Assembly (NCBI RefSeq): GCF_013128195.2
Contig: NZ_CP053452.2
Span: 6,634,001 to 6,698,000, forward strand
Length of the DNA stretch: 64,000 nt
Reading direction: 5' to 3'
Source of the DNA: Frigoriglobus tundricola
GTDB lineage: Bacteria; Planctomycetota; Planctomycetia; Gemmatales; Gemmataceae
A model generated the notes under the pieces. The model was not told where the DNA came from, ran no database searches, and worked only from the letters and a program-made list of their open reading frames with translations. Within the stretch, counting starts at the first letter, position 1. Each line of letters starts with the position of its first letter. Shown piece after piece: positions 35,383 through 46,533 of this stretch. A program made the translations under genes and the position numbers.

Positions 35383-36105
35383 GGCTGAAGTCCTTTATCG
35401 TGGGGACCCGTCGGGAGGGTAACTCGGGGCCGGGCGGAACCGGTCCGCCCCGGCGAACCGGGACGCGTCCTCAACGGAGGAAGAATTTGTCGTTCACGCG
35501 CCCCGCGGCGGCGTCCGTCGCCGCCAGGCACGGGTGCGGAACCGGGCCGCATCAGCGCCAGGCGGACGCCCCGACAGTTGAGGGCCACGTCGGCACTCCG
35601 CTGCCCGGGGAACGCCATCCTCAACGACAACGGCATACGCGACAACTTGAAAATCAATAACGTGGGCGATTTCGGGCACGGTGGCCGCAAACGTGAGCGA
35701 GGTCGGTGTCGGGAAGACCGGCTCGGGCTTCGTATTCCGGCGCCCGGGCGAAGAACCTGCCCCCGGCCTCGGAATGCGGCGTGCTCGGTGGTGAGCCGCC
35801 CCGGTCGTTCCCCACGGGCGGATACCGTACTCCTCCCGACGGAACGTTGAGCGAATGTGCTCTCGTTCGACCTCGGAAGTCCGTGAAAAGTGCGAGTGGG
35901 GCCCGGAATAGTTCGACAACCGCTAAAAAACCCCTAGGTTCCCTACACGCATCTCAGAACTCCAGCCAGAGCCACCGTCCGCTGCCGCTCGATCGGATCG
36001 ACCACATCCGCAGGACGCGGTTGCGAGCGGGGGGCGAGCGGCTCGCTGTCCTGTGCGACGGCAACGCCCGTGCGGTGCGGCGGGCGTCACCGGAGGGGCA
36101 ACACC
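35383..36105. other. intergenic region of about 720 bp
   Basis: No frame on either strand has coherent composition. A GC hairpin (35429-35454) lies 47 bp upstream of the SnoaL-like gene. Both neighbouring genes point away, so promoters for both are expected here, but I cannot define them. Confidence 0.4.
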
Positions 36106-37209
36106 GTGAAGGGCTCCGATCCCGGGCGACGGTCGCTCGCCGCCACACCGGCCCCGCGACCGGGGCCGCACCTCTCTCGGCGCGTGCTCCTCGCCGGTCT
36201 GGCGGCGGGCGGCTTCGCGACCGCGTTCGGCCTGACCAAGCTCGTCCGATACCAATCCACGCCCCCGGGAATGGTCCGGGTGCCCGGCGGCGAGTTCACG
36301 ATGGGCACCGATTCGGACCTGGGGTGGCCCGACGAGAAACCGGCCCACCGGGTGCGGGTGGACGGGTTCTTCATGGACGAGCACGAGGTCACCAACGCCC
36401 AGTTCCGCGCGTTCGTGGCGGCGACGGGGTACGCGACCACGGCCGAGAAGCCGGTCGACGTCGCGGCGATCCTCCGGCAGTCGGCGCCGGGCACACCGCC
36501 CCCGACCGGGGACGGACTGCTCCCGGGGTCGGTGGTGTTCGTCCCGCCGAGCGGTCCGGTCCCGGTACACGGTTCCGAGGTGTACCGGCAGTGGTGGCGG
36601 TGGACCCCGGGCGCGTGCTGGAAGCACCCACAGGGGCCGGGCAGCAGCGTTGAGGGGAAGGACGACCACCCGGTCGTTCACGTCTCGTGGGACGACGCCG
36701 TCGCCTATGCGAAGTGGGCCGGGAAACGGTTGCCGACCGAAGCCGAGTGGGAGTTCGCCGCCCGGGGCGGGCTGGACCAGAAGCCCTACGTGTGGGGCGA
36801 CGAGCGGCCCTCGGACGCGGTCGTCCACGCGAACATCTGGCAGGGCGAGTTCCCGGTCCACAACACGGCCCGCGACGGCTTCGAGGGGACCGCGCCGGTC
36901 AAGTCCTACGCCCCCAACGGGTACGGGCTGTACGACGTGGCCGGGAACGTGTGGGAGTGGTGCGCCGACTGGTACGACCGCGACCTGTACCGCACACGGG
37001 CCGGCGCCGGGGTGACCGCCAACCCGACCGGCCCGGACCGCAGCTCCAATCCCGCGCGGCCGTACACGCCCGAGCGCACCCAGCGAGGCGGGTCGTTCCT
37101 GTGCAACGACAGCTACTGTTCGCGGTACCGGCCGAGCGCCCGGCACGGGTGCAGCCCGGACACGGGCATGTCGCACGTCGGGTTCCGCTGCGTCCGGACC
37201 CCCGACTGA
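36106..37209 (+). CDS. formylglycine-generating enzyme (SUMF1-type)
   Basis: A 367-residue protein starting at GTG 36106, seven bases after GGAGGGG. A Tat-like or signal-anchor segment (SRRVLLAGLAAGGFATAFG) is followed by the FGE-sulfatase domain (MVRVPGGEFTMGTDSD ... HEVTNAQFRAFV ... LPTEAEWEFAARGG). Both copper-binding active-site cysteines of aerobic FGE are present: C333 and C338 in FLCNDSYCSRY, with the downstream GFRC also conserved. It oxidises a sulfatase Cys to formylglycine with O2. Many bacterial SUMF1-like proteins lack these cysteines; this one looks like a true FGE. It opens the plus-strand cluster of a DUF1254 protein and four sulfatases. Confidence 0.93.
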   Translation: MKGSDPGRRSLAATPAPRPGPHLSRRVLLAGLAAGGFATAFGLTKLVRYQSTPPGMVRVPGGEFTMGTDSDLGWPDEKPAHRVRVDGFFMDEHEVTNAQFRAFVAATGYATTAEKPVDVAAILRQSAPGTPPPTGDGLLPGSVVFVPPSGPVPVHGSEVYRQWWRWTPGACWKHPQGPGSSVEGKDDHPVVHVSWDDAVAYAKWAGKRLPTEAEWEFAARGGLDQKPYVWGDERPSDAVVHANIWQGEFPVHNTARDGFEGTAPVKSYAPNGYGLYDVAGNVWEWCADWYDRDLYRTRAGAGVTANPTGPDRSSNPARPYTPERTQRGGSFLCNDSYCSRYRPSARHGCSPDTGMSHVGFRCVRTPD

Positions 37210-37308
37210 GCGCGGACCCGGCGCCGGCCCCTCGCGCCCGCGCGTCCGGCCCGCACGGACGATGATGCGTTCCCGGCCCCACCCACGGCCCCAGGAAAGA
37301 ACGACCCC

Positions 37309-38718
37309 ATGAGCGCCCCCCCACTCACCGCGGCCCTCTTCACCGGTCTCGCTCTCGCGGCCCTTGCGCCGGCCGCCCGCGCGCAAGCCCTGACGGAAAA
37401 CGAGGCCGCGCAAATCGGCACCGCGGCTTACATCTACGGCTACCCGCTCGTCACGATGGAGTACACGCGGCGGGTCATGACCAACGCGACCGAGCCGAAG
37501 GGCAACCACGCCCCGATGGGCCAGTTCTTCAAGTCCCGCGTTTACCCCGACGCGAAGTTCCGCGACGTGACCGCCCCCAACGCCGACACCCTGTACTCGA
37601 CCGCGTGGCTCGACCTGACGAAGGAGCCCTACGTCCTCAGCCTCCCGGACATGGGCGACCGCTACTTCCTCATGCCCATGCTCAGCGCCTGGACGGACGT
37701 GTTTCAGGTCCCGGGCACGCGCACCACGGGCAACAAGGCGCAGACCTTTGCCGTCACCGGCCCCGGCTGGACCGGCACGCTGCCCGCGGGCGTCAAGGAA
37801 CTCAAGGCGCCCACGAACATTGTCTGGGTCCTCGGCCGCACCTACTGCACCGGCACGCCCGAGGATTACAAGGCGTGCCACGCCGTGATGGACAAGTACG
37901 ACCTGCGCCCGCTGAGCGCCTGGGGCAAGCCCTACGCCCCACCGGCGGGCACGGTCGATCCGGCGATCGACACGAAGACCGCGGTCCGCGAACGGGTCCA
38001 CGCGCTGGACGCGGGCGCGTACTTTGCCACACTCGCCGCACTGATGAAGGACAACCCGCCGGCGAAGGGGGACGCCCCGATGGTCGAACAACTGGCGAGG
38101 ATCGGCGTCGTCCCCGGCAAGGGCTTCGACCCCGCCAAGCTCGACCCGGCGGTGGCGAAGGGGTTGGCAACGGCCCCGAAGGCGGCCCAGGCGGCAATCA
38201 TCGGCAATTTCAAGAACGCGGGCAAAGAGGTCAACGGCTGGCAGGTCATGACGAAGACCGGCCTGTACGGAACCGAGTACCTCCAGCGCGCGTTCGTCAC
38301 CGCCGTCGGCCTCGGGGCGAACCGGCCGGAGGACGCGGTGTACCCCACGTCGGTTACCGACGCGACCGGGAAGAAGTACAGCGGCGCGAACAAGTACGTC
38401 GTCCATTTCGACAAGGGCCAGGTGCCGCCGGTGAAGGCGTTCTGGTCGATTACGATGTACGACGCCGGGTACTTCTTCGTGGCCAACCCGCTGAACAAGT
38501 ACACAGTCAGCCCCCGGAACGACCTGACGTACAACCCGGACGGCTCCCTGGACCTGTTCATCCAGCACGAATCGCCGGGCAAGGACAAGGAAGCGAACTG
38601 GCTGCCCGCCCCGAAGGGCGAGTTCGTGTTGATGCTGCGGATGTACTGGCCGGAGGTCCGGAGCCCGTCGGTCATCGACGGCTCCTGGAAGCCGCCACCG
38701 GTGACCCCCGTGAAGTGA
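37309..38718 (+). CDS. exported DUF1254/DUF1214 protein
   Basis: A 469-residue protein with a signal peptide ending ARAQA. The N-terminal DUF1254 domain (AAYIYGYPLVTMEYTRRVM, TAPNADTLYSTAWLDL) and the C-terminal DUF1214 domain (WSITMYDAGYFFVANPLNKY, DLFIQHESPG) are both complete. The activity is unknown. These proteins are widespread in soil and aquatic bacteria and are often near sulfatase or lipase genes. It sits 99 bp after the FGE and 111 bp before the first sulfatase, with an aligned orientation that suggests a shared function. Confidence 0.92.
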   Translation: MSAPPLTAALFTGLALAALAPAARAQALTENEAAQIGTAAYIYGYPLVTMEYTRRVMTNATEPKGNHAPMGQFFKSRVYPDAKFRDVTAPNADTLYSTAWLDLTKEPYVLSLPDMGDRYFLMPMLSAWTDVFQVPGTRTTGNKAQTFAVTGPGWTGTLPAGVKELKAPTNIVWVLGRTYCTGTPEDYKACHAVMDKYDLRPLSAWGKPYAPPAGTVDPAIDTKTAVRERVHALDAGAYFATLAALMKDNPPAKGDAPMVEQLARIGVVPGKGFDPAKLDPAVAKGLATAPKAAQAAIIGNFKNAGKEVNGWQVMTKTGLYGTEYLQRAFVTAVGLGANRPEDAVYPTSVTDATGKKYSGANKYVVHFDKGQVPPVKAFWSITMYDAGYFFVANPLNKYTVSPRNDLTYNPDGSLDLFIQHESPGKDKEANWLPAPKGEFVLMLRMYWPEVRSPSVIDGSWKPPPVTPVK

Positions 38719-38829
38719 GTGCGCGGAAACGGTCCGGTCGGGAACGCCCCTGTGCGGGTGCGTGCGGCTCGCTTCCCGTGGTCGGGCGCGGATTGATTTC
38801 CAAACGACTCGTTACTACAGAGGGGTTCC

Positions 38830-40587
38830 ATGTTCACGGGATCGAGAATCCAGACCGCCCTTGTGCTCGCCGTCGGCCTGACGGCCGGCTACGCGGCGGC
38901 GTCCGGGCGGTTCAACTCGTTCGCGAGCACCGGGGCGGCCCCCGCCGGCGCCGCCGACCCGACCGCCGGACCGGCCGCCGGTGGCTGTTGTGCCGGCGCC
39001 GATCCGGCGGCGCTGGCGGCGGTCGCCGCCCACAACGCGAAAGTGGCCGCGGCGGCACAAAAAGATGGCAAGAAACCGAACGTCTGCGTCATCTGGGGCG
39101 ACGACATCGGCCAGTCGAACCTCAGCTGCTACACCCGCGGGGTCATGGGGTACCACACGCCCAACATCGACGGCATCGCCAAAGCCGGGATGATGTTCAC
39201 CGACTACTACGGCGAGCAGAGTTGCACGGCCGGGCGGGCGTCGTTCATCACCGGGCAGCACGGCCTGCGCACCGGGCTGACGAAGGTCGGGCTGCCGGGG
39301 GCGACCCTCGGCTTGCAGAAAGAGGACCCGACCATCGCCGAACTGCTCAAACCGCTCGGGTACGCCACGGGCCAGTTCGGCAAGAACCACCTGGGCGACC
39401 GCAACGAGTTCCTGCCCACGGTTCACGGGTTCGACGAGTTCTACGGTAACCTGTACCACCTCAACGCCGAGGAAGAACCGGAACTGCCCGACTACCCCAA
39501 GGACCCGGCGTTCCGGGCGAAGTACGGCCCCCGTGGCGTCCTGGACTGTAAGGCCACCGACCGGGACGATCCGACGGTCGACGGGCGGTTCGGGAAAATC
39601 GGCAAGCAGACCATCAAGGACACCGGCCCGCTGACCCGGAAGCGGATGGAGACGATCGACGACGACGTGGCGGACCGGGCCGCGGAGTTCATCAAGCGAC
39701 AGGCGCAGGCGGACAAGCCGTTCTTCGTGTGGGTCAACTTCACCCACATGCACTTCCGCACGCACGTCAAGCCGGAGAGCCGGGGGCAGTCCGGGCGGTG
39801 GATGGGCGAGTACGCCGACGCCATGATCGACCACGACAAGAACATGGGCACGGTGCTCACTGCCCTCGACGCCGCCGGGGTCGCGGACAACACGTTCGTC
39901 GTGTACTCGACCGACAACGGCCCGCACATGAACACCTGGCCGGACGGGGCGATGACCCCGTTCCGGAACGAGAAGAACTCCAACTGGGAGGGCGCGTACC
40001 GGGTGCCGTGTCTCGTCCGCTGGCCGGGCAAGGTCGCGGCGGGCAGCGTGTCGAACCAGATCACGGGCCACCACGACTGGATGCCGACCGTGCTGGCGCT
40101 GGCCGGGGACGCCGGGGTGACCGAGAAGTTGCTCAAGGGGCACCCGGTCGGGGACGCGACCTACAAGGTCCACCTGGACGGCTACAACCTGGTCCCGCAC
40201 CTGACCGGTCAGAGCGCCAGGGGGCCGCGCGAATCGTTCCTGTACTGCAACGACGACCAGCAACTCGTCGGCCTGCGCTACGACAACTGGAAGCTGGTGT
40301 TCATGGAGCAGCGGGCGCCGGGCACCCTGCTGGTCTGGGCCAACCCGTTCACGACGCTCCGGGTCCCCAAAATGTACAACCTGCGGCTCGACCCGTACGA
40401 GCGCGCGGATCTCACCTCGAACACCTACTACGACTGGCTCATGGATCACGCCTTCCTGTGCGTGCCCGCGCAGGACTACGTGGGCAAGTTCCTGATGACC
40501 TTTAAGGACTACCCCCAGCGGCAGAAGGCGGCCAGCTTCAACCTCGACGAGGTCATGAAGAAGTTGCAGGAGAGCGGGGGGAAGTGA
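38830..40587 (+). CDS. exported arylsulfatase, CxAxR type
   Basis: A 585-residue sulfatase. An N-terminal signal segment (residues 8-25) and a Gly/Cys spacer with a CC pair (GGCCAGAD) precede the alkaline-phosphatase-like fold (NVCVIWGDDIG supplies metal Asp residues). The modified Cys is C132 in SCTAGRAS. The canonical third position Pro is Ala, giving CTAGR. TGQFGKNHLGDRNEFLPT and STDNGPHMN complete the active site. It hydrolyses sulfate esters; the natural substrate is unknown, likely a sulfated polysaccharide. The ATG follows AGAGGGG. It is a close paralogue of the gene at 44773. Confidence 0.92.
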   Translation: MFTGSRIQTALVLAVGLTAGYAAASGRFNSFASTGAAPAGAADPTAGPAAGGCCAGADPAALAAVAAHNAKVAAAAQKDGKKPNVCVIWGDDIGQSNLSCYTRGVMGYHTPNIDGIAKAGMMFTDYYGEQSCTAGRASFITGQHGLRTGLTKVGLPGATLGLQKEDPTIAELLKPLGYATGQFGKNHLGDRNEFLPTVHGFDEFYGNLYHLNAEEEPELPDYPKDPAFRAKYGPRGVLDCKATDRDDPTVDGRFGKIGKQTIKDTGPLTRKRMETIDDDVADRAAEFIKRQAQADKPFFVWVNFTHMHFRTHVKPESRGQSGRWMGEYADAMIDHDKNMGTVLTALDAAGVADNTFVVYSTDNGPHMNTWPDGAMTPFRNEKNSNWEGAYRVPCLVRWPGKVAAGSVSNQITGHHDWMPTVLALAGDAGVTEKLLKGHPVGDATYKVHLDGYNLVPHLTGQSARGPRESFLYCNDDQQLVGLRYDNWKLVFMEQRAPGTLLVWANPFTTLRVPKMYNLRLDPYERADLTSNTYYDWLMDHAFLCVPAQDYVGKFLMTFKDYPQRQKAASFNLDEVMKKLQESGGK

Positions 40588-40685
40588 CCCGATGGGGGGC
40601 GCCGCGCCGGCCGGGCGGTCGAGCCCTCCGGTCGGCCCATCGCCGGTTCGGTGACGCGCCCCGCTACCCCACAGGAACCTACACC

Positions 40686-42167
40686 GTGTGTTCGCGACTC
40701 CTCCTGACGGCCGCACTCGGCGCGATCGGCTGGGCCGTCACCGCGCCCGCCGCACCAGCGGCGGACAAGCCCAACATCGTCGTCATCCTCGCGGACGATC
40801 TCGGCAACGCCGACCTCGGCTACCGCGGGAGCAAGATCAAGACGCCCAACATCGACGCTCTGGCAAGGGGCGGGGTGCGGCTCGAATCGTATTACGGCCT
40901 GCCCCTCTGCACCCCCGCCCGTGCGGCGCTCATGACCGGCCGCTACCCGATGCGCCACGGGCTGCAGACGCTCGTGATCTTCCCGGGCCACAAGTACGGT
41001 CTGCCGACCGACGAAAAGACCCTGCCGCAGGCGCTCAAAGAGGTGGGCTACGCGACGTACATGGTCGGGAAGTGGCACCTCGGCCACGCGGACAAGAAGT
41101 TCTGGCCGCAGAACCGCGGGTTCGACCACTTTTACGGTAACGTCGTCGGCGAGGTGGATTACTTCACCAAGGACCGGGGCGGCGTCACCGACTGGCAGCG
41201 GAACGGCACCTTCCTCAAGGAGGAGGGCTACTACACGCACCAGATCGGCCGCGAGGCGGTCGGGCTGATCGAAAAGCACGACACGGCCAAGCCGCTGTTC
41301 CTGTACTTCGCCTCCCTCTCCGCGCACGCCCCGTACCAGGCGCCGAAAGACGAGATCGCCGCCTACAAGGACGTGTTCCCGGACCCGCAGCACCGGACCT
41401 ACGCGGCGATGGTCACCGGCCTGGACGCGGAGGTGGGGCGGATCGTCGCCGCGCTGGAAAAGAAGGGGATGCGCGAGAACACCGTGATCTTCTTCACCTC
41501 GGACAACGGCGGGGCCACGAGCGCGCTGTTCGCCACCGGGGCCCGGTCCCCGGAGGAGCGCGGGGCGAGCGGGGGCGTGGCGCTCGGGGCCAAGCCGCCG
41601 TGTTCGAACGCCCCGTTCCGCGGCGGCAAGGGAAGCCTCAAGGAGGGCGGGGTGCGCCTGCCCGCGATCGTGAACTGGCCGGCGAAGCTCAAACCCCGCG
41701 TCGTGAACGAGCCGCTGCACCACGTCGACGTGATGCCGACCCTGCTCGGCCTGGCCGGCGGGAAAGGGAGTTCCGACCACCCGTTCGACGGGGCGGACGC
41801 GCTCGCCACCATCGCCGAGGGCAAGCCGTCGCCGCACGACGACATCTTGATCAACGTGGAGGCGTTCCGCGGGGCCATCCGAAAAGACAATTGGAAGCTC
41901 ATCAAGGTCGCCGCGCTTCCGGGCACGACCGAACTGTTCGACGTTTCGAAAGATCCGGGCGAGACGGAGAACCTGGCGGCCAAGTACCCCGACGTGGTCA
42001 AGGGGCTGGAAGCCCGGCTCCTGAACTACGCCCGGCAGCAGAAGCCGAGCGAGTGGTTGAAGTCGCAGGTGGACTTCCTCGGCTTCCAGGGCGAGACGTT
42101 CCTCGACCCGGAGTACAGCACGGACGGCGGCCTGCCGCACGAGAAGCCGGTTCTCCCCAAGAAGTGA
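40686..42167 (+). CDS. exported sulfatase, canonical CxPxR
   Basis: Starts at GTG 40686 (AGGA upstream), yielding 493 residues with a clear signal peptide ending APAAD. The N-terminal metal motif IVVILADDLG is followed by the modification site CTPAR at C75 and the HGLQ segment. MVGKWHLGH carries the Lys/His pair, and FFTSDNGG supplies the distal metal ligands. This is a typical S1-family sulfatase resembling N-acetylgalactosamine-sulfatase-type enzymes; the substrate is not deducible. An upstream in-frame ATG at 40584 overlaps the previous stop but would place 34 residues before the signal peptide. Confidence 0.92.
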   Translation: MCSRLLLTAALGAIGWAVTAPAAPAADKPNIVVILADDLGNADLGYRGSKIKTPNIDALARGGVRLESYYGLPLCTPARAALMTGRYPMRHGLQTLVIFPGHKYGLPTDEKTLPQALKEVGYATYMVGKWHLGHADKKFWPQNRGFDHFYGNVVGEVDYFTKDRGGVTDWQRNGTFLKEEGYYTHQIGREAVGLIEKHDTAKPLFLYFASLSAHAPYQAPKDEIAAYKDVFPDPQHRTYAAMVTGLDAEVGRIVAALEKKGMRENTVIFFTSDNGGATSALFATGARSPEERGASGGVALGAKPPCSNAPFRGGKGSLKEGGVRLPAIVNWPAKLKPRVVNEPLHHVDVMPTLLGLAGGKGSSDHPFDGADALATIAEGKPSPHDDILINVEAFRGAIRKDNWKLIKVAALPGTTELFDVSKDPGETENLAAKYPDVVKGLEARLLNYARQQKPSEWLKSQVDFLGFQGETFLDPEYSTDGGLPHEKPVLPKK

Positions 42168-42169
42168 CC

Positions 42170-42199
42170 GGGTCCGGCGCGGAACCCCGCGCCGGGCCC
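42170..42199. terminator. GC hairpin between sulfatase genes
   Basis: The arms GGGTCCGGCGCGG (42170-42182) and CCGCGCCGGGCCC (42187-42199) pair with one G-T wobble around an AACC loop. It begins two bases after the stop of the second sulfatase and lies before the third. It could attenuate read-through or stabilise the upstream message. Confidence 0.5.
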
Positions 42200-42231
42200 T
42201 CAGGTCGCCGACCACACCCCGAGGGCCCGCC

Positions 42232-44646
42232 ATGCGCTCGCGCTTCCTGCTTACCGCGGTCTTCGCCCTTGGTGGGTTCTCCGGTTGGATGGCCGCATCC
42301 GGTCGGCTCGCGGACCTGTTCACTCGGGAGCAGACGACCGCCGCGAAGGGGGACGGCTCCGTGCTGCCGTTCCCCCCGACGCCGTCGGCGAGTGTCGCCG
42401 GTCCGACGGTGCGGGACTCGAAGATGGCGTGGCGGAAGGAGCCGGACCGCCTCAAGCCCGGCGCGCCGAACGTGCTGATCGTGCTGATCGATGACGTGGG
42501 GTTCGGGACGCCCGACACGTTCGGCGGCGAGTGCCGCACGCCGACGCTCACGAAGCTGAAGGCCGAGGGGGTCTGCTACAACACGTTCCACACCACCTCG
42601 ATCTGCTCCCCGACGCGCGCCGCCCTGCTGACCGGCCGGAACCACCACCGCGTGGGCAACGGCACCATCGCGGAGCGGGCCTCCGACTTCGACGGCTACA
42701 CCGGCACCATCCCGAAGACCGCCGCCACCGTTCCCGAGGTACTGCACCACTACGGCTACAGGTCCGCGGCGTTCGGCAAGTGGCACAACACGCCGGCCAA
42801 CCAGACCACCGCGATGGGGCCATTCGACCGCTGGCCCACCGGCCACGGGTTCGACCATTTCTACGGGTTCCTCGCGGGCGAAACGTCGCAATGGGAACCG
42901 CGCCTGTACGAGAACGTCACCCCGATCGAGCCGCCCCGGAGCGAGAAGTACCACCTGACCGAGGACATGGTCGAGAAGGGCCTCGCGTGGCTGAAGCGGC
43001 ACCAGGCGTTCGCGCCGGACAAGCCGTTCTTCATGTACTGGGCGCCCGGCGCCGCCCACGGGCCGCACCACATCTTCAAGGAGTGGGCCGACAAGTATAA
43101 GGGCCGGTTCGACGACGGCTGGGACAAGTACCGCGAACGCGTCTTCGCCCGCCAGACGCAACTCGGCTGGGTCCCGAAGGGCACGAAACTCACCCCGCGC
43201 CCCGACACGCTCGCGGCGTGGGACAGCATCCCGGAGGCGGAGCGGCCGTTCCAGCGCCGGCTCATGGAAGTGTTCGCCGGGTTCGTGGAACACACCGACG
43301 CCCAGGTCGGCAAGCTGGTGGACGGGATGGAGCGGCTCGGCCTGCGCGAAAACACGATCATCCTGTACGCGTGGGGCGACAACGGGTCCAGCGCCGAGGG
43401 GCAGAAGGGGACCGTCAGCGAACTGCTGGCCCAGAACAACGTCCCGAACACGGTCCAACAGCAACTCGCGGCGCTCGATCGGGTCGGCGGGGTCCCGGCG
43501 CTGGGCGGCCCGAAGGTGGACAGCATGTACCACGCGGGGTGGGCCTGGGCCGGCTGCACACCGTTCCGATCCACGAAGCTGGTCGCGGCGCACTTCGGGG
43601 GCACGCGCAACCCGCTGGTCGTCACGTGGCCGAAAGGCATCAAGCCGGACGCCGCGCCGCGGCCGCAGTTCCACCACGTGAACGACATCGCCCCGACGCT
43701 CTACGAGGTGATCGGCGTCCGGCCGCCCGACGAGGTGAACGGCTTCAAGCAGGACCCGATTGACGGCGTGAGCTTCGCGTACACGTTCGCCGACGCCACG
43801 GCGGCGGGCCGGAAGAGGACCCAGTACTTCGAGAACAACGGCAGCCGCGGCGTCTACCACGACGGCTGGTTCGCCGGCACGTTCGGGCCGCTCGTCCCGT
43901 GGGACACGGCCGGGTCCGCACCGACGCTCAAGGCGTGGGACGCGAACCAGGACGTGTGGGAACTTTACGACCTCACGAACGACTTCTCGCAGGCGAACGA
44001 CGTGGCCGCGAAAGAGCCCGCCCGGCTGGCGGCGATGAAGGCCCTCTTCCTGTCCGAGGCGAAGGCGAACAAGGCGCTCCCGATCGGCGGCGGGCTGTGG
44101 ACGCGGTTGCACCCCGAAGACGCCGTCGGCAGCCCGTACACGTCGTGGCGGTTCGACGCGACCAGCGTCCGGATGCCGGAGTTCACCGCGCCGCCCCTCG
44201 GTAAGCGGAGTACGCACGTCACCGCCGATGTTGAGGTCGGCAAAGGCGCCTCCGGGGTGCTGTACGCCCTCGGCGGCGCGAGCGGCGGTGTGACGCTTTA
44301 CATGGACAAGGGCCAGCTCGTCTACGAGTACAACATGCTGATCATCGAGCGGACGACCGCCCGGAGCGACGCGAAGATCGCACCCGGCAAGCACAGGATC
44401 GAGGTCGTCGAGACGATCGCGCGGCCCGGCGCCCCGGCCGACGTGGTCCTGAAGGTGGACGGCAAAGGGGTCGCGAAGGTCACGGTGAAGCGGACCGTAC
44501 CGGGGGCGTTCACGGCGAGCGAGACGTTAGACGTCGGGGCCGATCTCGGCTCGCCCGTCTCGCTCGAGTACTTCGACCGCGCACCGTTCAAGTTCGACGG
44601 CACGATCGAGAAGATCGTCGTCGAGTCAACGGCGCCCGTGCGGTAA
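42232..44646 (+). CDS. large exported arylsulfatase with C-terminal beta domain
   Basis: An 804-residue sulfatase of the long arylsulfatase type. An N-terminal membrane or signal segment at residues 4-22 and a Ser/Pro spacer precede VLIVLIDDVGFG. The modification site is CSPTR (C125). FGKWHNTP and YAWGDNGSS complete the core. A long insertion and a C-terminal beta sandwich (ADVEVGKGASGVLYALGG ... KIVVESTAPVR) extend it by about 170 residues, perhaps a carbohydrate-binding module. The ATG follows GAGGG. It has the highest length in the cluster and is not a close paralogue of the others. Confidence 0.92.
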   Translation: MRSRFLLTAVFALGGFSGWMAASGRLADLFTREQTTAAKGDGSVLPFPPTPSASVAGPTVRDSKMAWRKEPDRLKPGAPNVLIVLIDDVGFGTPDTFGGECRTPTLTKLKAEGVCYNTFHTTSICSPTRAALLTGRNHHRVGNGTIAERASDFDGYTGTIPKTAATVPEVLHHYGYRSAAFGKWHNTPANQTTAMGPFDRWPTGHGFDHFYGFLAGETSQWEPRLYENVTPIEPPRSEKYHLTEDMVEKGLAWLKRHQAFAPDKPFFMYWAPGAAHGPHHIFKEWADKYKGRFDDGWDKYRERVFARQTQLGWVPKGTKLTPRPDTLAAWDSIPEAERPFQRRLMEVFAGFVEHTDAQVGKLVDGMERLGLRENTIILYAWGDNGSSAEGQKGTVSELLAQNNVPNTVQQQLAALDRVGGVPALGGPKVDSMYHAGWAWAGCTPFRSTKLVAAHFGGTRNPLVVTWPKGIKPDAAPRPQFHHVNDIAPTLYEVIGVRPPDEVNGFKQDPIDGVSFAYTFADATAAGRKRTQYFENNGSRGVYHDGWFAGTFGPLVPWDTAGSAPTLKAWDANQDVWELYDLTNDFSQANDVAAKEPARLAAMKALFLSEAKANKALPIGGGLWTRLHPEDAVGSPYTSWRFDATSVRMPEFTAPPLGKRSTHVTADVEVGKGASGVLYALGGASGGVTLYMDKGQLVYEYNMLIIERTTARSDAKIAPGKHRIEVVETIARPGAPADVVLKVDGKGVAKVTVKRTVPGAFTASETLDVGADLGSPVSLEYFDRAPFKFDGTIEKIVVESTAPVR

Positions 44647-44772
44647 GTGCGTCGGCGCGAAGGAGCGTCCGCGCGTTGGTGCGAGTGAGTGGGCCGGCGA
44701 ACGTTACCCCGGTCGCGTTGGGGCGCCGGGACCCACTCGGAGAGTCGTGTTCTACACCCAGAGGAAGACCCC

Positions 44773-46533
44773 GTGAGACGTTCCAGACTTCAACTCCTCG
44801 CCGTCCTGGTGGTCGGCGCGGTGTTCGGCTACGCCGCGGCCGACCCGGCCGTGCTGCACCCGTTCCGGAGTACGCAGGCGGCTCCGCCGGCCGCGGCCGC
44901 CGGCGGGCTCGATGGGGGCTGTTGTGGCGGCGCCGATAAGGCGGCTCTGCTGGCGGTTAGTGCCCACAACGCGAAGGTGTCCGCGGCGGCCCAGAAGGAC
45001 GGCAAGCAGCCGAACATCGTCGTCATCATGGGCGACGACATCGGCATCTGGAACATCGGTGCCTACCACCGGGGCATGATGGGCGGGCGGACCCCGCACC
45101 TCGACAAGCTCGCCAAGGAGGGCATGCTGTTCACCGATTACTACGCCGAGGCGAGCTGCACCGCGGGCCGCGCGGCGTTCGTCACCGGCGAGCTGCCGAT
45201 CCGCACCGGGATGACCACGGTCGGCCAGGCCGGCGCCAAGACCGGGCTGCCCGCCGAAGCCTGCACGATCGCCACCGCGCTCAAGGACCTGGGCTACGCC
45301 ACGGGCCAGTTCGGCAAGAACCACCTGGGCGACCGCAACGAGTTCCTGCCCACCGTCCACGGGTTCGACGAGTTCTTCGGCTACCTGTACCACCTGGACG
45401 CGATGGAGGACCCCGCGCACCCCGGCTACCCGCAGGAACTACTGGACCGCGTCGGGCCGCGCAACATGGTCCACTCGTGGGCGACGGACAAGGACGACCC
45501 GACCGAGATGCCCCGGTGGGGCAAGGTCGGCAAGCAGAAGATCGAGGACGCGGGCACACTGTACCCGAAGCGGATGGAGACGGTCGATGACGAGATCCGC
45601 GACCTCTCCTTCAAGTTCCTCGACAAGGCCAAGGCCGACGGCAAGCCGTTCTTCCTCTGGCTCAACCCGACCCGCATGCACATCGTCACCCACCTCTCGG
45701 ACAAGTACCAGAAGGTGCGCAACTCGAAGAACGGCTGGTCCATCCAGGAGGCCGGCATGGCCCAGCTCGACGACATCGTCGGCGAGACGATGCAGAAGCT
45801 CAAGGACCTGGGCGTGGACGACAACACCATCGTCGTCTTCACCACGGACAACGGCACGGAAACGTTCACCTGGCCGGACGGCGGGAACACCCCGTTCCGG
45901 GGGCAAAAGGGTACGATCTACGAGGGCGGGTTCCGCGCCCCCGCGCTGGTCCGCTGGCCGGGCCGCGTGCCCGCCGGCGCGGTCGAGAACGGCATCATGT
46001 CCGGCCTGGACTGGTTCCCCACGCTCGTCGCCGCCGCCGGCAACCCGAACATCAAGGAGGAGCTGCTGAAGGGCAAGACGATCGGCGCCCGCACCTACAA
46101 GAACCACCTGGACAGCTACAACCAGTTGGACATGCTCACCGGCAAGGGGCCGTCCAAGCGCCACGAGATCTTCTACTTCGGCGAGAGCACCCTCGGGGCG
46201 GTCCGCATCGGCGACTTCAAGTACCGGTTCATCGACCAGCCGAAGGGCTGGATCGGGGGCAAGGTCCAGGTCGACGCGCCCGTGCTGACGAACCTGCGCC
46301 TGGACCCGTTCGAGCGGTTCGATTACCCGGAGAACGGGACGCTCAACGGCACGCAGAATTACTTTAGCTGGTTCCAGTACGAGTTCTGGCGGTTCGTGTT
46401 CGTCCAGGAGGAGGTGGCGAAGCTGGCCGTGACGGCGCTCGAATACCCGCCCATGCAGAAGGGCGCGAGCTTCAACCTCGAAGCCGTGAAGGCGAAGATC
46501 GAGGACGCCATGAAGGCGCAGCGCGCCCGGTAA
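44773..46533 (+). CDS. exported arylsulfatase, CxAxR type, paralogue of 38830
   Basis: Starts at GTG 44773 after GAGGAAG and encodes 586 residues. It parallels the first sulfatase throughout: signal segment, a spacer with a CC pair (GGCCGGADKAALLAV), NIVVIMGDDIG, the modification site CTAGR at C129, TGQFGKNHLGDRNEFLPT and TTDNGTETF. As in the first gene the Pro of CxPxR is Ala. The two probably arose by duplication within the cluster. A strong hairpin follows the stop, ending the sulfatase group. Confidence 0.92.
   Translation: MRRSRLQLLAVLVVGAVFGYAAADPAVLHPFRSTQAAPPAAAAGGLDGGCCGGADKAALLAVSAHNAKVSAAAQKDGKQPNIVVIMGDDIGIWNIGAYHRGMMGGRTPHLDKLAKEGMLFTDYYAEASCTAGRAAFVTGELPIRTGMTTVGQAGAKTGLPAEACTIATALKDLGYATGQFGKNHLGDRNEFLPTVHGFDEFFGYLYHLDAMEDPAHPGYPQELLDRVGPRNMVHSWATDKDDPTEMPRWGKVGKQKIEDAGTLYPKRMETVDDEIRDLSFKFLDKAKADGKPFFLWLNPTRMHIVTHLSDKYQKVRNSKNGWSIQEAGMAQLDDIVGETMQKLKDLGVDDNTIVVFTTDNGTETFTWPDGGNTPFRGQKGTIYEGGFRAPALVRWPGRVPAGAVENGIMSGLDWFPTLVAAAGNPNIKEELLKGKTIGARTYKNHLDSYNQLDMLTGKGPSKRHEIFYFGESTLGAVRIGDFKYRFIDQPKGWIGGKVQVDAPVLTNLRLDPFERFDYPENGTLNGTQNYFSWFQYEFWRFVFVQEEVAKLAVTALEYPPMQKGASFNLEAVKAKIEDAMKAQRAR

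What the first reader, a model, noticed from the sequence alone, without database searches (positions are those of the whole stretch)
38830..46533. Two of the four sulfatases carry CTAGR instead of CxPxR and share an N-terminal CC motif
The genes at 38830 and 44773 have Ala where aerobic FGE recognition normally needs Pro, while the other two are canonical. Both Ala-type enzymes also share a spacer with GGCC-(A/G)-GAD before the catalytic domain. Either the local FGE accepts Ala, or another system modifies these two. The paired cysteines may have their own role, such as metal or lipid attachment.
Basis: seen in the sequence. Interest (0 to 1): 0.6.

Follow-up and report, generated by a model that had tools for sequence, protein, structure and literature searches.

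The report
Alanine-motif sulfatases beside their activating enzyme
Two of four sulfate-removing enzymes in this planctomycete gene cluster have a known but less common activation motif (alanine for proline); comparison with relatives suggests the ordinary oxygen-using activating enzyme next door handles it, while the neighbouring cysteine pair is a separate, lineage-specific feature of the export tail.

Summary
The genes at 38830 and 44773 carry CTAGR; the two between them carry CTPAR and CSPTR. Both Ala-type proteins have a GGCC spacer. Of 11 strong sulfatases in the genome, 8 have Pro, 2 Ala (these two) and 1 Val at that position.

CTAGR is not an oddity of this locus. It is the usual state of one sulfatase family (137 of 153 non-redundant rows), and Ala there is described in print (369 of 4058 sulfatases, PMC5066984).

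Best explanation: the co-directional aerobic FGE at 36070, with the Cys pair, modifies all four. The genome has no anaerobic maturase over the family cut-off. In 48 of 78 genomes with an Ala-type gene a Cys-pair FGE is the only maturase found; in two draft genomes the only strong sulfatase is CTAGR, beside the FGE. Against this, 19 of 78 show neither maturase, so a further route exists or something was missed.

The CC spacer is not linked to Ala. It belongs to one planctomycete lineage, lies in a linker after a hydrophobic helix, can be one C or absent, and occurs on a CTPGR relative. It is no lipobox. Homologues on rhizobial plasmids (85% identity) show inter-phylum transfer. Ordinary overall.

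The parts
36070..37209 (+). Aerobic formylglycine-generating enzyme (FGE) with the Cys pair GGSFLCNDSYC; N-terminal hydrophobic segment preceded by SRR
   Evidence: PF03781 1.5e-88; best solved relative 6s07 FGE, 1e-86; Cys pair; N-terminus
37309..38718 (+). DUF1254/DUF1214 protein in the same run of genes; a homologue recurs near Ala-type sulfatases
   Evidence: Pfam; homologue in 6 of 86 related loci
38830..40587 (+). S1, Ala-type sulfatase (CTAGR) with N-terminal anchor and CC spacer
   Evidence: PF00884 5.5e-52
38986..38991 (+). CC codons of the S1 spacer
   Evidence: sequence
39223..39237 (+). CTAGR of S1
   Evidence: sequence
40584..42167 (+). S2, Pro-type sulfatase (CTPAR); the true start is probably downstream of 40584 (judged by eye)
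   Evidence: PF00884 3.1e-65
42232..44646 (+). S3, Pro-type sulfatase (CSPTR); shares the hydrophobic-helix half of the N-terminal module, no CC
   Evidence: PF00884 4.2e-59; module half match at G000:C1:6676232
44773..46533 (+). S4, Ala-type sulfatase (CTAGR) with N-terminal anchor and CC spacer; catalytic part 85% identical to a rhizobial plasmid protein
   Evidence: PF00884 2.4e-53
44920..44925 (+). CC codons of the S4 spacer
   Evidence: sequence
45157..45171 (+). CTAGR of S4
   Evidence: sequence; C129 at the start of a helix in the model

Best explanation
A co-directional, probably co-transcribed sulfatase cluster with its own aerobic, copper-dependent FGE. The FGE converts the motif Cys to formylglycine in both Pro-type (CTPAR, CSPTR) and Ala-type (CTAGR) sulfatases. 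The Ala-type pair belongs to an old, widely transferred S1 sulfatase family in which Ala is the usual state. The CC spacer is part of a planctomycete-lineage membrane anchor plus linker fused to these enzymes, not part of FGE recognition. Shown: motifs, gene order, FGE type, no anSME over cut-off, family-wide Ala, complete active site, purifying selection, CC not tied to Ala. Inferred: that the FGE acts on CTAGR, that the cluster is one operon, and that the enzymes work outside the cytoplasm.
For: FGE upstream on the same strand, with the Cys pair. No anSME over cut-off in this genome. 80 of 80 named related loci have CTAGR; 19 of 80 also hold an FGE homologue, 18 of those showing the Cys pair, as do two alphaproteobacterial plasmid loci. 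In 8 of the 23 planctomycete genomes with a Cys-pair FGE, the own genome included, the FGE lies within 8 kb of an Ala-type gene (coordinates). Of 78 genomes with an Ala-type gene, 48 have a Cys-pair FGE only, 8 anSME only, 3 both, 19 neither. G362 and G359 have one PF00884 match each at E <= 1e-20, CTAGR, beside a Cys-pair FGE, and no TIGR03942 match. Ala/Pro changes only 4 times on a 159-row tree, against 10.8 in shuffles. Catalytic residues kept. dN/dS 0.10-0.17 in seven orthologue pairs.
Against: No biochemical test here. PMC8068374 (passage) reports that a radical-SAM AtsB recognises CTAGR while CTPSR is used for classical FGE, and PMC4505483 (passages) gives the FGE motif as CXPXR, so Ala is probably a poorer FGE substrate. 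19 of 78 genomes have an Ala-type gene but neither maturase, so FGE cannot be the whole story everywhere. The own genome holds a second Cys-pair FGE, so the local one may not be the one that acts. The two single-sulfatase genomes are MAGs and may be incomplete.
Confidence: 0.78

Rival explanations
1. A different, undescribed maturase modifies the CTAGR sulfatases, and the FGE serves only the Pro-type ones.
For: 19 of 78 genomes with an Ala-type gene show neither Cys-pair FGE nor anSME over cut-off, including single-contig planctomycete genomes rated 99% complete. CTPSR rather than CTAGR is used with classical FGE in tag work (PMC8068374 passage).
Against: FGE-only is the commonest state (48 of 78), and in G362 and G359 the FGE's only strong sulfatase is CTAGR. 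G050 and G054 also yield many sulfatase candidates (first look: 110 and 108), so a missing maturase there need not be Ala-specific.
Confidence: 0.12
2. The CTAGR sulfatases are unmodified and inactive, or act as something else.
For: Weaker use of Ala motifs with classical FGE in tag work. PsFucS1 (7aj0), the nearest solved relative, showed unmodified Cys in its crystal after E. coli expression, though with activity (PMC8484680 passages).
Against: Catalytic residues kept over 27 aligned rows, low dN/dS, transfer between phyla with the motif kept. M. mazei AtsB is reported to recognise CTAGR.
Confidence: 0.05
3. CC is a functional partner of the Ala motif: metal or copper handling, disulfide or lipid anchor tied to maturation of these two enzymes.
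For: In the 41 genomes the full-length matches to the CC module coincide with genes of the Ala-type family; the hydrophobic half alone is on other sulfatases.
Against: Absent from nearly all Ala-type rows outside the lineage, present on CTPGR L057, reduced to one C in L019, L046 and L047 and absent in L037; low-confidence, disordered stretch in the model; no lipobox.
Confidence: 0.05

Closest known systems
S1 formylglycine sulfatases with the C/S-X-P/A-X-R signature (SulfAtlas S1; PROSITE PS00523 as updated in PMC5066984)
   Same: PF00884 fold, catalytic residues, Ala listed at the Pro position in print
   Different: No close relative with a solved structure: best sequence match PsFucS1 7aj0, 26% identity by Foldseek, with CTSSR in the alignment
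Aerobic FGE (SUMF1 type; 6s07)
   Same: PF03781, Cys pair C....C, high similarity
   Different: N-terminal hydrophobic segment; natural neighbours include CTAGR sulfatases
Methanosarcina mazei AtsB / CTAGR aldehyde tag (Kruger et al., as told in PMC8068374)
   Same: Same pentapeptide
   Different: Radical-SAM maturase; no TIGR03942 member over the cut-off in the window's genome

Membership tests
S1 FGly sulfatase | PF00884 domain over cut-off | tested here: met
   all four proteins
S1 FGly sulfatase | C/S-X-[PA]-X-R catalytic signature | tested here: met
   signature wording
S1 FGly sulfatase | conserved Ca-binding and catalytic Asp/Lys/His/Asn residues | tested here: met
   invariant or nearly invariant columns; which residues are catalytic follows PMC5066984
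S1 FGly sulfatase | formylglycine actually present; sulfatase activity | not testable with these tools
   needs mass spectrometry and assay
aerobic FGE | PF03781 and nearest to solved FGEs | tested here: met
aerobic FGE | copper-binding Cys pair | tested here: met
   GGSFLCNDSYC; that these Cys bind copper is recalled knowledge
aerobic FGE | acts on a CTAGR substrate | not testable with these tools
   needs a bench assay
anaerobic maturase (anSME/AtsB) | TIGR03942 match over cut-off in the genome | tested here: not met
   best 23 bits, cut-off 349.45
lipoprotein | lipobox directly after the signal h-region | tested here: not met
   read by eye: CC well past the hydrophobic segment, preceded by AGG or DGG; the lipobox rule is recalled

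The most novel reading that the evidence does not exclude
Some aerobic FGEs have co-evolved with CTAGR sulfatases and convert Ala motifs as well as or better than Pro motifs, travelling with them between phyla as a cassette. The FGEs of G362 and G359, whose only strong sulfatase is CTAGR, would be natural Ala-specific enzymes and ready-made partners for a second protein tag.
Probability: 0.25. Interest if true: 0.5.

Novelty: new member of a known kind. Interest (0 to 1): 0.33.

Why it matters
It turns an apparent motif defect into a testable statement about FGE specificity, and points to natural FGE-CTAGR pairs useful for protein tagging. It also separates the CC spacer, a lineage-specific tail, from catalysis. 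Genomes with Ala-type sulfatases but no known maturase point to a further formylglycine route or to undetected maturases.

Tried and rejected
Rejected: CC as a lipobox (position and context wrong). CC as an Ala-linked feature (L057). Loss of active site. The acesulfame sulfatase of Shinella as a relative (PMC11500405: its motif is given as CxPxR, passages). An early reading that the rhizobial FGEs lack the Cys pair was an error of my search expression (His for Phe); one search corrected it. One search read only the + strand; one search repeated it on both strands and on the FGE matches not yet read, and took the Cys pair away from G047 and G056, which I had counted as FGE (partial matches of 180 bits). 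FGE pocket residues were not analysed. A literature search for CXAXR with formylglycine found 0 papers; CTAGR was met in two papers.

Rows and counts: 163 family rows, 10 of them contained repeats, leave 153 (137 CTAGR, 1 STAGR, 9 CTPGR, 2 CTPSR, 1 CSGSR, 3 fragments without the motif). The tree used 159 rows (163 less 4 motif-less fragments), repeats included, by FastTree with warnings about long branches. The tree's CC count (24 rows) includes two spurious ones (L053, L060). In one search CC counts only at 20-33 residues before the catalytic part; L034, L052, L089, L099 and L140 have a CC at other distances and were not counted. The named scan kept the best 80 of at least 578 relatives. Only 50 of the 80 named loci were searched genome-wide, because of a cap. 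28 of 59 genomes, the own one included, went into the maturase table, namely those with an orthologue at E <= 1e-118. In one search many genomes had only 28 candidates scored; 17 of the 19 'neither' genomes were searched again with all candidates scored, G047 and G056 were not. One 'neither' genome (G382) has a 263-bit anSME fragment at a contig end, under the cut-off. In one search the pair S1-L018 was out of frame (20 codons) and is dropped; the paralogue pair S1-S4 gave 0.63 with an implausibly low synonymous rate, and synonymous rates are distorted by high GC.
Full report
What is there. The window is G000:C1:6634001-6698000 of a 9.86 Mb planctomycete-like genome (the group is inferred from its relatives). 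From 36070 to 46533 six genes run on the + strand: an FGE, a DUF1254/DUF1214 protein and four sulfatases S1 to S4. S1 and S4 carry CTAGR, S2 CTPAR and S3 CSPTR. Short gaps suggest an operon; this is inference.

Genome-wide check. PF00884 gives 14 matches, 11 strong. At the Pro position 8 of 11 have Pro, 2 Ala (S1 and S4) and 1 Val (CGVSR at C1:5701764). PF03781 gives 12 matches. Of the ten places outside the window, all fetched, one shows the Cys pair (C1:1809790), so with the window gene the genome has two Cys-pair FGEs. The anaerobic maturase family TIGR03942 reaches 23 bits against a cut-off of 349.45.

Is Ala odd? No. A library paper counts Pro in 87% of 4058 S1 sulfatases and Ala in 369 (PMC5066984 section 7, read). 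A review gives the consensus C/S-X-P/A-S/X-R (PMC10154612 passages). A review passage (PMC8068374) says that M. mazei AtsB recognises CTAGR, Ala in place of Pro, while CTPSR is used for classical FGE. PMC8909960 (passages) speaks of a CTAGR tag within FGE recognition motifs and cites work on aerobic FGEs; I recall, but could not read, that aerobic FGE with copper converts it (papers not held).

The family. In the 59 genomes (own included) 28 have a strong S4-like gene, and 40 of 294 genomes drawn from the phylum do at E <= 1e-60. A scan of named genomes with patterns that allow Ala or Pro kept the best 80 loci, all 80 with CTAGR in the main match. Hosts include rhizobia, Pseudomonas, Vibrio, Shewanella, Methylobacter, Desulfovibrio, Obscuribacterales, Eremiobacterota and the methanogen Methanolobus. 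Of 153 non-redundant rows 137 are CTAGR, 1 STAGR, 9 CTPGR, 2 CTPSR, 1 CSGSR and 3 lack the region. On a 159-row FastTree, repeats included, Ala/Pro needs 4 changes against 10.8 in shuffles (0 of 500 as low). Two Pro groups (L033/L049/L050 and L182) lie inside the Ala clade; one Ala row on a long branch (L191) lies with the CTPGR sister group. Ala is thus an old state that can change back.

Transfer. Over residues 78-581 S4 is 84.7% identical to a protein encoded on a Sinorhizobium terangae plasmid and 80% to one in Bradyrhizobium, more than to several planctomycete relatives (63-72%). The tree places it with three planctomycete genes beside that plasmid gene. A CSPTR or CSPSR sulfatase of the S3 kind lies in the same locus in 6 of 86 related loci (L062, L067, L068, L074, L089, L096) and a DUF1254 gene in 6 of 86.

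Which maturase? Of 80 named loci 19 hold an FGE homologue, 18 of them showing the Cys pair; the other is cut by its contig end. In 78 genomes (28, 50 named) anSME over cut-off occurs in 1 of 28 and 10 of 50. The FGE profile matches 25 of 28 and 28 of 50 at E <= 1e-50. I read the best match of all 53: 30 and 23. 51 have the Cys pair; G047 and G056 do not. So Cys-pair FGE occurs in 23 of 28 and 28 of 50. Cross-table: FGE only 48, anSME only 8 (G353, G369, G372, G377, G387, G388, G391, G392), both 3 (G045, G375, G394), neither 19. In 8 of the 23 planctomycete genomes with a Cys-pair FGE, the own one included, it is within 8 kb of an Ala-type gene; no chance level was computed, and FGEs may lie near sulfatases in general. 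In ten genomes searched for PF00884, G362 and G359 each have a single match at E <= 1e-20, a CTAGR sulfatase beside a Cys-pair FGE. They are MAGs (L084, L081), so a second sulfatase may be missing.

Against. 17 of the 19 genomes without either maturase were searched again with all candidates scored; the best FGE-profile match was 109 bits, and no Cys pair appeared in the 16 loci fetched, both strands read. The 19 include single-contig G050 and G054, rated 99% complete, and isolates such as Hyphomicrobium facile and Pseudomonas mandelii 6A1. So either a further formylglycine route exists or known maturases were missed. This weakens 'FGE everywhere' but not the case in this window, where the FGE is present.

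Are S1 and S4 real enzymes? The family alignment keeps the motif Cys and Arg, the GKxH Lys and His, the later His, the DNG Asp and Asn and the Lys, with the first two Asp nearly invariant. dN/dS is 0.10-0.17 in seven orthologue pairs (one out-of-frame pair dropped, the paralogue pair S1-S4 gives 0.63; synonymous rates are distorted by high GC). The model of S4 (mean pLDDT 73.3, pTM 0.78) puts C129 at the start of a helix. Foldseek ranks human arylsulfatase A and PsFucS1 first.

The CC spacer. The N-terminal module is a hydrophobic helix with GxxxG[YW], a variable linker, CC and then AHNxKVxAxxQ (those rows were chosen for having CC). In the model residues 3-23 are helix, 23-54 low-confidence without structure (CC at 50-51) and 56-76 helix. 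In 41 genomes the full-length module matches coincide with genes of the Ala-type family, while the hydrophobic half alone also lies on CSPTR sulfatases such as S3. CC is present in 19 of 24 Ala-type rows of the two families nearest the window; the rest have one C (L019, L046, L047), none (L037) or an incomplete start (L027). Of 114 other Ala-type rows 3 score, of which L067 and L110 are planctomycete MAGs and L053 is spurious. L057, a CTPGR relative cut at its contig end, has CC and AHN. CC therefore follows the host lineage. Its function is unknown; I think a structural or redox role in the linker most likely.

Verdict. Observation confirmed; the FGE reading is favoured at 0.78; the CC-Ala link is not supported. 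Ordinary but useful.

Noticed in passing
genomes G046, G047, G050, G054, G056 and 14 named genomes (for example L070, L073, L082, L104, L113): Ala-type sulfatases present but neither Cys-pair FGE nor anSME over cut-off found, including single-contig genomes: hint of a further formylglycine route or of undetected maturases.
   Followed up: partly
G000:C1:5701764-5702735 (L007): A sulfatase of the same genome has CGVSR, Val at the Pro position.
   Followed up: no
L178, L181: S3-type sulfatases of Bradyrhizobium carry CSTTR, Thr at the Pro position.
   Followed up: no
36070-37209: The FGE starts with a hydrophobic segment preceded by SRRVLL, resembling a Tat signal (recalled); it may work outside the cytoplasm. 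L110 also has a hydrophobic start; the annotated FGEs of L061 and L062 start close to the domain.
   Followed up: no
L061, L062, L071, L074, L098, L106, L109: Alphaproteobacterial FGEs beside CTAGR sulfatases carry a CC[IV]P.NPRGG loop before the Cys pair.
   Followed up: no
37309-38718 and L072, L090, L105, L113, L134, L144: A DUF1254/DUF1214 protein recurs near Ala-type sulfatases; role unknown.
   Followed up: partly
L145:16661-18295: A STAGR (Ser-type) member of the same family in Vibrio owensii, whose genome (G377) has four anSME matches over cut-off.
   Followed up: no
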